From: Cepaea nemoralis
Taxonomy: Eukaryota > Mollusca > Gastropoda > Stylommatophora > Helicidae
NCBI GenBank assembly: GCA_014155875.1
Contig: JACEFZ010012647.1
Span: 140,001-204,000, forward strand
Reading direction: 5' to 3'
DNA: 64,000 bases
Shown piece after piece: positions 21,425-33,147 of the stretch. The notes beneath the pieces were generated by a model. That model was not told where the DNA came from, did not search any database, and was given only the letters and a program-made list of their open reading frames with translations. Within the stretch, counting starts at the first letter, position 1. Every line of letters starts with the position of its first letter. Made by a program: the position numbers and the translations under genes.

Positions 21425-21430
21425 ACCATG
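21425..21430. repeat. 6-bp target-site duplication, left copy
   Basis: ACCATG is the left copy, paired with 33142-33147. Counting the duplication once restores continuous reading of the RTE-B endonuclease around its SDH motif. Confidence 0.88.
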
Positions 21431-22765
21431 ATTAGTATAGTGGAGGCCGCATCCACGTAATTCCGCATCCAAAATGGCTGCCTATAGTTTTTTATGAAGT
21501 TTTTGGTGAGGTGGGTAAAAAATGGATATTTTTTTTGGGGGCGGTAAAATGGCTGCCTGGTCCGGGTCTATGAATTTTTTTGGTGGGAAATATTTTTTTG
21601 TTCGTCTCTGGAAGTTGGAACGGGGTATATGAAAATCTGTGGGGATTTTGTTTCTGTAAAAGTAATTAAGGTAGTGCGGTGTATGAAGGTGGCGGGGAGT
21701 GTGAGCACGGATGAGGGGTGGCGCTGAAGGGGTGGTTGAAGAGATGTAAGTTATATATTTTGGTTGGATGTGGTTACAAAACGTAGGGTATATGAATGAT
21801 CTGTTAAATACGTGGTGTTATACAACTATGCGTGGTGAGATGGGTGTAGTGCGTGATGTATAAACTTGCAAGGGCGGGGTGTGACGGGTCGTCTTTATAC
21901 TCGACGAAGCATGGTTAGAGATAAGAGTGGTAGAGGGTCACTATCATCTGAACAAAAGTAAAGATGGTCGTAGGATTCTGGCGTGGATGGGGTGATGTCA
22001 TCTGTCTGCGGGGTAGCAGAACACTGAAGAGGACTATCATTGGTTGTTAATACGCCTTACATCACCCAGATGGGCCCCATGGTGGGAAAACATCGTGGTG
22101 GTAAGAGGGTGTAGAGACTGTCGGTATCAACTGAACAAAAGTAAAGAGGGTTGCTTATAATGAGAATATATTTTGGTTGTTGAAGTGTTGGTGAAGTGTA
22201 CAAGGTCGGGCTGGGAACGCGGTACCTGCTAAATGTTTTTAGTGTAATGTTATACAACTATGCGTGGCGAGATGGGTGTAGTGAAAGCGTGATGTATAAA
22301 CTTCCAACATCGTGGTGTGACGGATCGGTGTGTATGGTCTCTGCCAGTGAAAATAAGACAGTAGAATTCTTGTTTAGGCGGGGATGGTGGGTAAGTTGGC
22401 AGAGATCAGAGGGCAGAGGTGGGTGTAATGAAAACGAGGGTTCCAACCAGCACCACATGTATATTTACCCTAGTAGTAATTCTTGATGGTTGGTGAAAAT
22501 GTAGTCTGTAAAAGTAATTAGTCGAAAGTAGGAAGGGGTAAAATGTTCGTGTCGGTACCAAGTGTGTTAAATGTGTGATGTTAAGTGTAGGGCGATAGTA
22601 GTGTCTTAGTGAAATTAAAGGGTGGTATGTTCATAGTAGCTTATTCACCGATTAGAAATCTTATAAAGTTGTAATGGATATGGTGTCATTTGGTGGTAAG
22701 GGTGGGTACCAGGTATTAGTAGTCGATATAGGGGTGGTCATAAATGTAATAAGATAAGAGGTGTA
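21431..22765 (+). repeat. left terminal inverted repeat
   Basis: Its reverse complement is found at 31790-33141. Long stretches match with only scattered differences, for example 21640-21840 with 32720-32935. It contains internal short repeats such as gaacaaaagtaaag (21953, 22134) but no gene that I recognise. Confidence 0.93.
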
Positions 22766-23500
22766 GAGGGTCACTATCATCTGAAAAAAACATAAGAGTC
22801 TGGGCTTAGTAATATAGTGATGGGGTCGTAGTTCTGAGTGGATGGGGTGATGTCCGCCGTAGTGGTGATGATTGTCGATCGGGCCCGCAGAACACTGAAG
22901 AGGACTATCATCGAGAGTCAATACGGTTCATGTGACCCAGGTGCTTGGACTGTTCCTCTAGGCAACCGCAATATATCATCGTAATCGTCTACACGAGCCT
23001 CATTGTCTATAACAAATACATAAACAAAAAGACACGTACACACATGTACACAACTGCACGTACACACAGACATCAACCATACAAGTATACACATAAGCAC
23101 ACCCACACATCACAAAGACATCAACCATGCAAGTATACACATATGCACACCCACACCCACAAAGACATCAACCATACAAGTATACACATAAAAACACCCA
23201 TACAATCAGGAACGCCTATACGTCTACATTCAGACAGACACACAAGTACAACGAAGCAAACAAACAGACAGACACACAACTACAACGAAGCAAACAAACA
23301 GACAGACACACAAGTACAACGAAGCAAACAGACAGACTCACAAGTACAACGAAGCAAAGAAACAGACACGCGTATAGATATATACAGAGGCAAACAGACA
23401 GACACACAGTACGATTGCCTGGGACCATCAACACACACGTTTCTTCACCAGGGCTACGTTCAAGAATTTCTTAATGAGAAAAACACGCGCTGGTACCACT
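22766..23500. repeat. CA-rich minisatellite inside left TIR
   Basis: The part 22990-23430 is made of diverged units such as agacatcaaccatacaagtatacacata and caagtacaacgaagcaaacaaacagacagacacac. Long frames here are repeat artefacts. The right side of the element has a TG-rich counterpart (30540-31370). Confidence 0.8.
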
Positions 23501-23604
23501 AAACCCTTGATATGAATGGGGGTGAGCATCATGATTCTATTGGTTGGTTGTTTCAAGTGGCTGGCTTTCTTCTTACTTCTTGTCCCGAGAGACATCAACA
23601 CTGA

Positions 23605-23744
23605 CATATATATATATATATATATATATATATTTAGAGAGAGTGAGAGAGAGAGAGAGAGAGAGAGAGAGAGGGAGGGAGAGAGAGAGAGAGAGAGAGA
23701 GAGAGAGAGAGAGAGAGAGAGAGAGAGAGAGAGAGAGAGAGAGA
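23605..23744. repeat. (TA)n(GA)n microsatellite
   Basis: A short TA run is followed by a long GA run. Confidence 0.97.
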
Positions 23745-23929
23745 AGAAAAACCATACAATAGAACCCAAAAAAAAACATAATAAAATAGAGAAACAAAAT
23801 TAAAAACAAACAAATAATAACATTTTGAAACGGGTGTTATTGGTATACAACATTTAAAACTGGCTTCGTTTACGATCCAAAGGGAGCATGATTATTGTAG
23901 AAAGATGTCTTGCTACCATGTGTAATTCT

Positions 23930-30370: not shown

Positions 30371-30539
30371 CCGATGACTCATGCTACCACTTAATGACTT
30401 TTGCATATGGCTCTGGTGACGTAGGGTTGTCTCGGACATCCGCGTTCGTTACCAAAATGGGTATGTGGTTTGTATAGTTTGTGATATTCTTGTGGAGCCA
30501 GGAAGAGGGTATACTTGTGTATTTGTTTACGGGTATATG

Positions 30540-31370
30540 TATCTGTACTGGTTGTGGTACCAGTAGTAATGGTAGGAGATGGGTGTGTCTTTGTGTTTGT
30601 ACGCTTGTAGGTCTGTACTTGTCTGTATATGTTGTGCTTGTGTTTACATGTGTGTACGCGTGTCTGTATGTGTGTGGTTGTTTATGGATGTGTGTCTGTC
30701 TTTGTGTGTGTATTTGTGTAGTTGATGTATGTGTGTACGTGCAGATGTGTCTGTACGTGGTTGTGTATAGTTGTGATGACAGTAGTAATGGTAGAAGATG
30801 GGTATGCATACTTGTCAGTGTTCATTTCTGTATGTACAAATGTGTCTGTGTCTTTGTGTGTTTTTTGTTTGTAGGTGTGTATTTGTGTAGTTGATTATGG
30901 GTGAGAGTGTCTGTACTTGTGTATAGTAGTGATGACAGTAGTAATGGTAGGAGATGGGTGTGTATGTCTTTGATTGTTCTTGTGTATGGGTAAGTGTGTC
31001 TCTGCACATGTGTATAGCTGTTGATGTGACAATAGTAATGTTATGGGTTGTCTGTGTATGGTTGTCTTTGTGTTTGTATGTGTGGTTGTGTGACCCTCTT
31101 TGTGTATTTGTTTATGGGTGTGTACTTGTGTATAGCTGTTGTTGTGACAGTAGTAATGGTAGGAGATGGGTGTGTATGTCTTTGATTGTTCTTGTGTATG
31201 GGTAAGTGTGTCTGTGTGTACTTGTGTATAGTTGTGATGACAGTAGTAATGGTATGGTTTGTCTGTACTTCTGTATCTGTATGTGTGTACGTGGGTGAGT
31301 TTGGTTGTCTTTGTATTTGTGTGTATCAAGTGTGTACTTGGCTGTCTTTGTGATTGTATGACCCTCTTTG
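30540..31370. repeat. TG-rich minisatellite inside right TIR
   Basis: Units built on gatgacagtagtaatggtaggagatgggtgtg are separated by TG-rich stretches (for example near 30550, 30775, 30930, 31147 and 31237). It is roughly the inverted counterpart of the CA-rich block at 22.99-23.43 kb. Frames here are artefacts. Confidence 0.8.
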
Positions 31371-31479
31371 TATGATTTTTATACACCCCACAAAAAAGAG
31401 ACTTGTATCTCTAACAACGCACTATTTAATATTCTTGTCGCTAATATTGGTAGTACTATTATCACTACTAGTGATTTCT

Positions 31480-31790
31480 CCTCACTTTACCCACCACCAT
31501 TGCACTATACGTACATTCCCCTACAATTTTCCTCACTTGACCACCTTTTGACCAATGCTTGACCACTAATTTACCACCCTACAATCATCACCATATCATT
31601 ACAATCACTCTTCCCCTAAAATTTTCTCACTTGACCACCCCTTGACCATTACGTGACCACTGCTTGACCACTAATTTACCACCCTTTAAGCATCACCCTA
31701 TCATTACAACCACTTTTCCCTAAAATTTCCTCACTTGACTACTTGACCGCTGCTTGACCACTGGTTGACCAGTGTGTAACTACGAACATA
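31480..31790. repeat. degenerate tandem repeat next to right TIR
   Basis: Two to three diverged units of about 115 bp contain cttgaccaccccttgacca, ctaatttaccaccct and atcattacaa. Confidence 0.65.
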
Positions 31791-33141
31791 ACACCTCTTA
31801 TCAATACCCATTACATTTATGACCGCCCCTATATCGACCACTCCTACTTGACCACTAATACCTGGTAACCACCCCTTACCACCAAATGACACCATATCCA
31901 TTACAACTTTATAAGATTTCTAATCGGTGAATAAGCTACTATGAACATACCACCCTTTAATTTCACGAAGACACTACTATCGCCCTACACTTAACATCTC
32001 ACATTTAACACACTTGGTACCGACACGAACATTTTACCCCTTCCTACTTTCGACTAATTACTTTTACAGACTACATTCTCACCAACCATCAAGAATTACT
32101 ACGAGCGTAAATATACATGTGGTGCTGGTTGGAACCCTCGTTTTCATTACACCCACCTCTGCCCTCTGACCTCTGCCCTCTTACCCACCATCCCCGCCTA
32201 AACAAGACTTCTACTGTCTTATTTTCACTGACAGAGACCATACACACCGATCCGTCACACCACGATGTTGGAAGTTTATACATCACGCTTTCACTACACC
32301 CATCTCGCCACGCATAGTTGTATAACATTACACTAAACACATTTAACAGGTACCGCGTTCCCAGCCCGACCTTGTACACTTCACCAACACTTCAACAACC
32401 AAAATATATTCTCATTATAAGCAACCCTCTTTACTTTTGTTCAGTTGATACCGACAGTCTCTACACCCTCTTACCACCACGATGTTTTCCCACCATGGGG
32501 CCCCATCTGGGGGATGTAAGGCGTATTAACAACCAATGATAGTCCTCTTCAGTGTTCTGCTACCCCGCAGACAGATGACATCACCCCATCCACGTCAGAC
32601 TCCTATGACCATGTTTACTTTTGTTCAGATATAGTGACCCTCTACACCTCTTATCTATACCCATGCTTCGTCGAGTATAAAGACGACCCGCCACACCCCA
32701 CCCTTGCAAGTTTATACATCACGCACTACACCCATCTCACCACGCATAGTTGTATAAAATCACGTATTTAACAGATCATTCATATACCCTACGTTTTGTA
32801 ACCACATCCAACCAAAATATATAACTTACATCCCTTCAACCACCCCTTCAGCGCCAACCCTCATCCGTGCTCACACTCCCCGCCACCTTCATACACCGCA
32901 CTACCTTAATTACTTTTACAGAAACAAAATCCCCACAGATTTTCATATACCCCGTTCTAACTTCCAGAGACGAACAAAATTACCCACCAAAAAAAATTCA
33001 TAGACCCAGACCAGGCAGCCATTTTACCGCCCAAAAAAAAAAAATCCATTTTTAACCCAACTCACCAAAAAACTTCATAAAAAACTATAGGCAGCCATAT
33101 TGGAAGCTGAAATACGTGGATGTGGCCTCCACTATACTACT
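31790..33141 (-). repeat. right terminal inverted repeat
   Basis: It is the inverted copy of 21431-22765 and ends ...ggcctccactatactact. Confidence 0.93.
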
Positions 33142-33147
33142 ACCATG
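33142..33147. repeat. 6-bp target-site duplication, right copy
   Basis: ACCATG, the right partner of 21425-21430. Confidence 0.88.

What the first reader, a model, noticed from the sequence alone, without database searches (positions are those of the whole stretch)
21425..33147. 11.7-kb element with 1.34-kb TIRs and a 6-bp target duplication: Polinton-like, without visible polymerase or integrase
The ends (AG...), TIR length and ACCATG duplication fit Polinton/Maverick, yet no hallmark gene can be read. The TIRs are still nearly identical, so it moved recently. This suggests a non-autonomous family mobilised by another element, or an undescribed long-TIR superfamily that carries a C2H2 gene and small unknown genes. 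Counting ACCATG once rejoins the interrupted RTE-B frame, so the boundaries are exact.
Basis: partly seen in the sequence, partly recalled or inferred. Interest (0 to 1): 0.88.

Follow-up and report, generated by a model that had tools for sequence, protein, structure and literature searches.

The report
Third segment of a split Polinton
The 11.7-kb element is one of three kinds of integrated unit that share the same ends and that together, but not singly in any copy read, carry the gene set of a Polinton (a virus-like giant transposon), which suggests a Polinton whose genome is divided over separately integrating segments.

Summary
In detail: 21431-33141, TIRs 1.33/1.35 kb (94.5% alike), exact ACCATG duplication, rejoined RTE-type frame. 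The 3.47-Gb source genome holds many copies with the same ends. Of 11 independent split-family insertions read at both ends, 10 have an exact 6-bp duplication, one 5 of 6.

Copies fall into three classes. Unit A: rve-chromo integrase, capsid-, protease- and ATPase-type genes, Bcl-2. Unit B: family-B polymerase. Unit C (this element): a C2H2 gene and a GADD34/PPP1R15-like gene, the latter broken here. Ends track lineage, not class. Of 29 facing end pairs, 17 hold exactly one listed module, 12 none, 0 two. None of 114 A-type integrases lies within 20 kb of the 110 listed polymerases; as positive control, 19 of 63 other polymerases have a listed integrase 4.8-6.9 kb away.

Best reading: a tripartite Polinton whose units act in trans. 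Main rival: satellites served by an unseen helper. Hit lists were truncated, several gene labels rest on recalled motifs, and no virion or transcript was seen.

The parts
21425..21430 (.). target-site duplication, left copy (ACCATG)
33142..33147 (.). target-site duplication, right copy (ACCATG)
21431..22764 (+). left terminal inverted repeat
   Evidence: 94.5% to the right arm; related ends elsewhere in the genome
31791..33141 (-). right terminal inverted repeat
26736..26999 (-). N-terminal piece of the GADD34/PPP1R15-like gene (acidic, Trp-containing)
   Evidence: 150 listed loci of 939 candidates at 87-100% aa identity, 138 of 150 without stop in the matched stretch; the frame ends early here, while the sibling C10744 reads on
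26582..26740 (-). continuation of that gene in another frame (broken in this copy)
26150..26416 (-). C-terminal piece resembling the PP1-binding core of PPP1R15/GADD34 and DP71L
   Evidence: PDB sequence search: top three of 11 hits DP71L, PPP1R15B, PPP1R15A, E 0.025-0.068; siblings C10744 and C127 give the same families on top; Pfam PF10488 12.4 bits, below its cut-off 26.1
29512..30018 (-). C2H2 zinc-finger ORF (168 aa; two good fingers; shorter than the 218-220 aa frames of sibling C10744); relatives on A and B units
   Evidence: Pfam zf-C2H2 8.6e-10; tblastn
27582..27942 (+). decayed small ORF in two frames; parts recur in C10744, C2757, C26340 and C127, broken in those; function not assigned
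   Evidence: nothing significant in Pfam or PDB
23930..24687 (+). degraded retroelement-like repeat inside the element
   Evidence: 72% to 50809-51672 and 15866-16727
20000..21424 (+). left part of the RTE-type retroelement that was interrupted
33148..33900 (+). right part of the same RTE-type retroelement

Best explanation
The element is the third unit ('C') of a tripartite Polinton (Maverick / adintovirus-like) system. Unit A (12.5-13.3 kb) carries integrase, capsid-, protease- and ATPase-type genes and a Bcl-2 homologue. Unit B (10.3-14.4 kb) carries the family-B DNA polymerase, mostly with PC4-like genes. Unit C (9.5-12.2 kb) carries no replication or capsid gene but a C2H2 gene and, in most copies seen, a GADD34/PPP1R15-like gene. 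(Lengths leave out four end pairs of 19-32 kb.) All three have related terminal inverted repeats, and each sits by itself in the host DNA with its own 6-bp duplication. Most likely mechanism: polymerase from B replicates any DNA with these ends, integrase from A inserts it (6-bp staggered cut), A's capsid genes package it, and C helps by keeping translation on (GADD34-like: PP1 recruited to dephosphorylate eIF2alpha), as A does by blocking apoptosis (Bcl-2). SHOWN: ends, duplications, exclusive gene content in the copies read and in the lists, ends shared across classes, high copy number, constraint on A and B core genes. INFERRED: action in trans, packaging, function of the GADD34-like protein, joint infection. 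In the window's copy the GADD34-like gene is broken.
For: (1) Direct reading of 12 independent TIR-bounded elements (13 rows with the duplicate contig C7493): 3 A, 4 B, 3 C, 1 one-piece, 1 derivative of 5.5 kb without any of the genes. No A or C has polymerase, no B or C has integrase or capsid-type genes (tblastn E 0.01), while the one-piece C23807 scores for both sets. (2) Genome lists: 0 of 114 A-type integrases within 20 kb of any of 110 listed polymerases; 0 of 47 B-group polymerases within 20 kb of 181 listed integrases; 0 of 150 GADD34-like N pieces within 20 kb of either; positive control: 19 of the 63 other polymerases have a listed integrase 4.8-6.9 kb away. (3) 29 facing end pairs over 4 kb: integrase alone 6, polymerase alone 5, GADD34 alone 6, none listed 12, two modules 0. 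(4) Ends follow lineage, not class: window left end vs A C21378 left 94% (its right end 85%), vs B C19806 left 89%; B C16315 left vs A C20459 left 94% and C C127 left 91%; A C13219 vs B C1846 left-left 92%, right-right 95%, against 82-84% left-right within each, support 100/99 and 91/83. (5) dN/dS between the three A units with full genes 0.26-0.30 over 1,607-1,609 codons; PolB between B units 0.39-0.50. (6) No stop in the matched stretch: 96 of 114 integrases, 31 of 47 B polymerases, 138 of 150 GADD34-like pieces.
Against: No virion, transcript, excision or replication was observed. The hit lists are truncated (110 of 2,902, 114 of 6,102, 116 of 19,114, 150 of 939 candidates scored), so a one-piece element with these ends and a divergent polymerase could have been missed; in the control itself 44 of 63 other polymerases have no listed integrase nearby. 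12 of 29 end pairs hold no listed module; 2 of these 12 (C7493, C2757) were read and are A and C, 10 were not read. One polymerase locus of the 66-72% group (C25892) also lacks capsid-type genes in 18 kb, borders not resolved. C2757 (C) shows no GADD34-like piece. Other dN/dS values are higher: A pairs with C20459 0.33-0.86 (197 codons), Bcl-2 0.60-0.68, B accessory genes 0.42-1.03, GADD34 0.47-0.68, C2H2 in C units 0.74-1.58. On the end tree class labels are not clearly clustered but also not fully random (10 changes, shuffled mean 11.8, as low in 32 of 200). ATPase, minor-capsid and other labels have no Pfam support and are recalled.
Confidence: 0.66

Rival explanations
1. A, B and C are non-autonomous satellites or deletion derivatives of one-piece Polintons and are moved by a one-piece helper with matching ends that is rare, lost or not assembled.
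For: One-piece Polintons occur in the genome (C23807 read; 18 further integrase-polymerase neighbours at similar spacing) and C23807's integrase is 87% identical to A's; derivatives of 1.3-3.6 kb with the same ends exist; C-unit genes are weakly constrained.
Against: The one-piece element read here has unrelated ends (42-48% to all A/B/C ends). B is not collinear with the one-piece order: PC4, C2H2 and PolB lie on one strand in C1846, while PolB and C2H2 oppose PC4 in C23807. Core genes of A and B show dN/dS 0.26-0.50 between full copies, and the split recurs in three end lineages.
Confidence: 0.22
2. The apparent exclusion is an artefact of truncated hit lists or of fragmented assembly; one-piece elements with these ends are common.
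For: Lists are lower bounds; the assembly has 26,579 contigs.
Against: The same method finds 19 integrase-polymerase neighbours at a near-constant spacing, and 10 split-family units with genes were read from end to end with duplications at both sides.
Confidence: 0.07
3. The GADD34-like pieces are a chance resemblance, and unit C is only a parasitic satellite with no helper function (this can hold beside the tripartite reading of A and B).
For: No single hit reaches E 1e-3 (best 0.0047); the Pfam score is below its cut-off; the three queries are related to each other.
Against: PPP1R15A/B and DP71L take the first three, four and five places of the PDB lists for the three copies searched, and the N piece is kept at 87-100% identity at 150 listed loci, 138 of them without stop.
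Confidence: 0.15
4. Local inverted duplication, or an undescribed long-TIR superfamily.
For: None beyond the first look at this copy alone.
Against: Many copies with 6-bp duplications and sibling units with Polinton-type genes.
Confidence: 0.01

Closest known systems
Polinton / Maverick (Eupolintoviridae, adintoviruses)
   Same: Long TIRs ending in AG, 6-bp duplication, rve-chromo integrase, protease-, ATPase- and capsid-type genes and family-B polymerase, but over three units together (AG ends and 6-bp duplication as Polinton hallmarks are recalled)
   Different: Described as one 15-25 kb (up to 40 kb) element with polymerase and integrase (PMC6431247, section 10 read; PMC12567637, passages: linear dsDNA 15-40 kbp). 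Here the genes are split over 9-14 kb units, and one unit has none of them.
One-piece Polinton C23807 in the same genome
   Same: Homologous integrase, ATPase-, capsid-, protease- and PC4-type proteins and PolB; exact 6-bp duplication GTCGTG
   Different: All on one 16.2-kb element with unrelated 430-bp TIRs
Bidnaviruses, Vesanto virus
   Same: Some have genomes in up to twelve segments and a PolB of adintovirus type (PMC8363768 and PMC11071296, passages read)
   Different: Described there as ssDNA viruses uniting a parvovirus-type NS1 helicase and capsid with that PolB; here large units are integrated with 6-bp duplications and carry an rve integrase
GADD34 / PPP1R15 and the viral DP71L and ICP34.5
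   Same: Resemblance to the C-terminal core of PPP1R15A/B and DP71L; ICP34.5 not compared
   Different: Carried on a Polinton-like unit; similarity is marginal by sequence; this copy is broken

Membership tests
Polinton/Maverick | 6-bp target-site duplication | tested here: met
   ACCATG here; 10 of 11 independent split-family insertions exact, C2757 5 of 6; the GATGAT case C19806 lies in a GAT repeat
Polinton/Maverick | Long TIRs beginning AG | tested here: met
   AGTAGTATAG at the right end and in most siblings; the left end here reads ATTAGT
Polinton/Maverick | Family-B DNA polymerase on the element itself | tested here: not met
   absent from this element, from C10744 and C2757 and from the A units read; on B units, with motifs KLLGNAAYG and DTDS in C1846 (patterns recalled) and DNA_pol_B_2 at E 0.02, below cut-off
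Polinton/Maverick | Retroviral-type integrase on the element itself | tested here: not met
   absent here; on A units rve 1.2e-10 and chromo 2.1e-7
Polinton/Maverick | Capsid, protease and ATPase genes on the element itself | tested here: not met
   absent here; on A units, where protease is only weakly matched (Peptidase_C5 0.055), ATPase has no Pfam match, and capsid rests on relatives, one of them named F54H12.2-like
Segmented Polinton (proposed set A+B+C) | Shared ends, complementary and exclusive genes | tested here: met
   within truncated lists
Segmented Polinton (proposed set A+B+C) | Units replicate and move in trans together | not testable with these tools
   needs molecules, transcripts or live host
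PPP1R15/GADD34 | Conserved C-terminal PP1/actin-binding core | tested here: inconclusive
   top PDB hits in three copies, best E 0.025, 0.0047 and 0.018; Pfam below cut-off
Bidnaviridae | Parvovirus-type NS1 helicase and capsid | not tested
   no targeted search made; none among the Pfam hits of 43 ORFs from the units and 19 members of the capsid alignment

The most novel reading that the evidence does not exclude
A segmented (tripartite) integrating dsDNA virus of animals: a Polinton lineage whose capsid/integrase, polymerase and host-manipulation genes live on three separately integrating segments that share their ends, each kept as a working genome segment, with GADD34-like and Bcl-2-like genes divided between segments.
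Probability: 0.55. Interest if true: 0.95.

Novelty: new variant of a known kind. Interest (0 to 1): 0.88.

Why it matters
Polintons are described as single self-synthesising units and are placed near the root of many eukaryotic DNA viruses (PMC6431247, section 10). A lineage whose genome is divided among segments with common ends would show how a one-piece integrating dsDNA virus becomes multipartite, would offer a link to the segmented bidnaviruses that carry an adintovirus-type polymerase, and would explain some 'non-autonomous' Polintons as genome segments. This genome gives many paired copies with which to test it. GADD34-like and Bcl-2-like genes point to a real infection with host countermeasures rather than mere transposition. 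Searches of the open-licence library showed no segmented Polinton and no GADD34-like gene in one, as far as listings were seen: 4 of 4 papers listed; 0 found; 20 of 33; 5 of 5; 15 of 29; 15 of 24; 10 of 86; 12 of 37; passages of five papers and one section were read.

Tried and rejected
Undescribed superfamily or local duplication: rejected by the copies. A 52-kb element on C25401: rejected, both ends have identical flanks in inverted orientation, i.e. a palindromic duplicate of one end; left out of the 29-pair count (a one-piece-family integrase lies between them at 24518). C7493 has the same flanks as C21378 and was not counted as an independent insertion. Six pairs under 4 kb were left out of the pair count. 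The ubiquitin-like look of 27742-27939 was dropped: about 3 bits per domain, broken in the siblings seen. IMG/VR: three 15-bp matches judged chance; no capsid-type or polymerase relatives. The C2H2 ORF found one weak relative, the GADD34-like C piece none. Pfam did not recognise polymerase pieces beyond E 0.02 nor the capsid set; the best PDB hit of the capsid profile is a viral major capsid protein at E 0.26, and the polymerase half has no PDB hit. Polymerase was then supported by motifs (patterns recalled). Structure prediction was not run. Genome-wide searches with the capsid-type protein and with the GADD34-like C piece did not complete.
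Full report
1. The observation. The element spans 21431-33141, with ACCATG on both sides. The arms align over 1,355 columns at 94.5%, the outer ~200 bp less well than the next ~1,000. Joined flanks with a single ACCATG give an uninterrupted RTE-type frame. Nothing inside this copy was recognised as Polinton core.

2. A multicopy family. The source genome (3.47 Gb, 26,579 contigs) gave 62 matching pieces for window 21426-21900 (40 of 365 candidates scored). Of the insertions read at both ends, eleven independent split-family loci carry duplications: ACCATG (window), CAGCAT, TGAGTG, CCTATG, GTTATG/ATTATG, GATGAT, CAACTA, AACGAC and ATAGTA, ACAATG and TCTGTC; ten are exact, one has a mismatch, and GATGAT lies in a GAT repeat. 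The one-piece element C23807 has GTCGTG. C7493 repeats the flanks of C21378 and is not counted.

3. Three classes. tblastn of ORFs from the copies against the copies gives, for TIR-bounded elements: A = C21378 (12.9 kb), C13219 (13.0), C15785 (13.3); B = C16315 (14.4), C19806 (13.7), C1846 (13.6), C14607 (10.3); C = window (11.7), C10744 (11.8), C2757 (12.2); one-piece = C23807 (16.2); C18299 (5.5 kb) matches none. Partial copies C20459 (A), C9601 (B-type accessory genes; one short protease-like match too), C26340 and C127 (C) fit the scheme. A: ATPase-type, integrase (rve 1.2e-10, chromo 2.1e-7), capsid-type proteins, protease (weak, 0.055), PC4-like, Bcl-2 (6.3e-11); C13219 and C15785 also have a C2H2 gene. 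B: polymerase (exonuclease piece DNA_pol_B_2 0.02; motifs KLLGNAAYG and DTDS 100 residues apart in C1846, C25892 and C23807), C2H2 and, except C14607, PC4-like and two small genes. C: C2H2, and GADD34-like pieces in the window, C10744 and C127 but not found in C2757.

4. Names of parts. Integrase, Bcl-2, C2H2 and (just at its cut-off) PC4 rest on Pfam. The capsid-type protein has 830 relatives at E 10 or better, 120 listed; the three listed with a named animal source are the gastropods Pomacea, Littorina and Plakobranchus (62-68% identity), so the host is probably a mollusc (inference). One is named F54H12.2-like; that this is the worm Maverick capsid gene is recalled. The best PDB match by profile is a viral major capsid protein at E 0.26, not significant. 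'Capsid', 'minor capsid' and 'ATPase' thus rest on recalled motifs and on gene neighbourhood, which the one-piece C23807 repeats.

5. Exclusion in the whole genome. PolB search: 110 listed of 2,902 candidates, 47 at 79% or more (B group) and 63 at 66-72%. A integrase: 114 listed of 6,102, 93-100% identical, 96 without stop. One-piece integrase: 116 listed of 19,114, 67 of them not in the first list. No A integrase lies within 20 kb of a listed polymerase, and no B polymerase within 20 kb of a listed integrase; 19 of the 63 other polymerases have one at 4.8-6.9 kb, 44 have none listed. GADD34-like N piece: 150 listed of 939, 138 without stop; none within 20 kb of a listed integrase or polymerase. 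The lists are truncated, so the exclusion holds within them.

6. Ends. Two tip patterns give 29 and 63 ends, with 0 matches to the reversed patterns. Of 29 facing pairs over 4 kb, 6 hold integrase, 5 polymerase, 6 GADD34, none two, 12 none of the listed hits. In the lineage of pattern two, units with integrase (C4874, C13219, C14550, C25990), polymerase (C1846, C14607, C22284) and GADD34 (C7264, C11568, C13234, C21799) share the same 33-bp ends within 3 mismatches. Pairwise identity groups ends by lineage across classes. A C13219 and B C1846 agree left with left (92%) and right with right (95%) better than left with right within each (82-84%). The tree of 24 ends puts these together with support 100/99 and 91/83 and mixes the classes; labels are not clearly clustered (10 changes against 11.8 shuffled, as low in 32 of 200).

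7. Selection. Pooled core genes between the three A units with full genes: dN/dS 0.26-0.30 over 1,607-1,609 codons; pairs with the partial C20459 0.33-0.86 over 197. PolB between B units 0.39-0.50; B accessory genes 0.42-1.03. A or B against the one-piece element 0.12-0.21. Bcl-2 0.60-0.68, GADD34 pieces 0.47-0.68, C2H2 in C units 0.74-1.58. So the core genes of A and of B were kept by selection; the C copies read are mostly drifting, though the N piece is open in most listed loci.

8. The GADD34-like gene. The C piece of three copies puts PPP1R15A/B and DP71L at the head of the PDB list, best E 0.0047. No hit is significant alone and the three queries are related. PMC10998612 (abstract and passages read) says that a conserved ~70-residue core is what viral and invertebrate members share with the mammalian ones. 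In the window the gene is broken (its N pieces change frame). The pieces were not joined.

9. Mechanism. Taken together, the units hold the gene set of a Polinton. The simplest working model is that proteins of A and B act in trans on shared ends and that C rides along and supplies host control. B's gene order differs from the one-piece order, which speaks against plain deletion. The rival, satellites of a helper, needs a helper with these ends, which was not seen; the lists cannot exclude it.

10. Known or new. PMC6431247 (section 10 read) describes Polintons as self-replicating, typically 15-25 kb elements with polymerase and integrase. PMC8363768 (passages) describes an adintovirus contig of 14.5 kb with polymerase, integrase, capsid, protease and FtsK homologues, and, like PMC11071296 (passages), segmented bidnavirus-like viruses with PolB. 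The searches listed no segmented Polinton; five of the eight listings show only part of the papers found. Rated a new variant of a known kind.

Noticed in passing
whole genome G000: Very heavy Polinton load: first-look candidates number 2,902 for PolB, 6,102 and 19,114 for integrase, many of the listed ones with open frames.
   Followed up: partly
L040-L041 (C25892:158201-176200): A group of near-equal PolB hits at about 67% identity; the one locus read has PolB and C2H2 but no capsid-type gene or integrase within 18 kb: perhaps a second split family; borders not resolved.
   Followed up: partly
L026 (C18299:205468-210936): 5.5-kb derivative with related ends, a 6-bp duplication and a retroelement-like 347-aa ORF inside.
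   Followed up: no
C18225, C19418, C3047, C15758, C21700, C20334: Facing ends only 1.3-3.6 kb apart: short derivatives, not read.
   Followed up: no
L015:3618-4184 (+): Bcl-2 family gene on A units (Pfam 6.3e-11), also in C13219 and C15785.
   Followed up: partly
window 34074-35689: Tandem array of about 23 copies of a 70-bp unit, 97% alike, just right of the element.
   Followed up: no
window 28975-29187: Four copies of a 53-bp tandem repeat inside the element.
   Followed up: no
window 57838-59829 (+): 664-aa open frame that looks like a host gene; not searched.
   Followed up: no
L027 (C25401:2701-12600): Transposase-like and RTE-type ORFs inside one end (by eye); the contig holds an inverted duplicate of this end with the same flank.
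   Followed up: no
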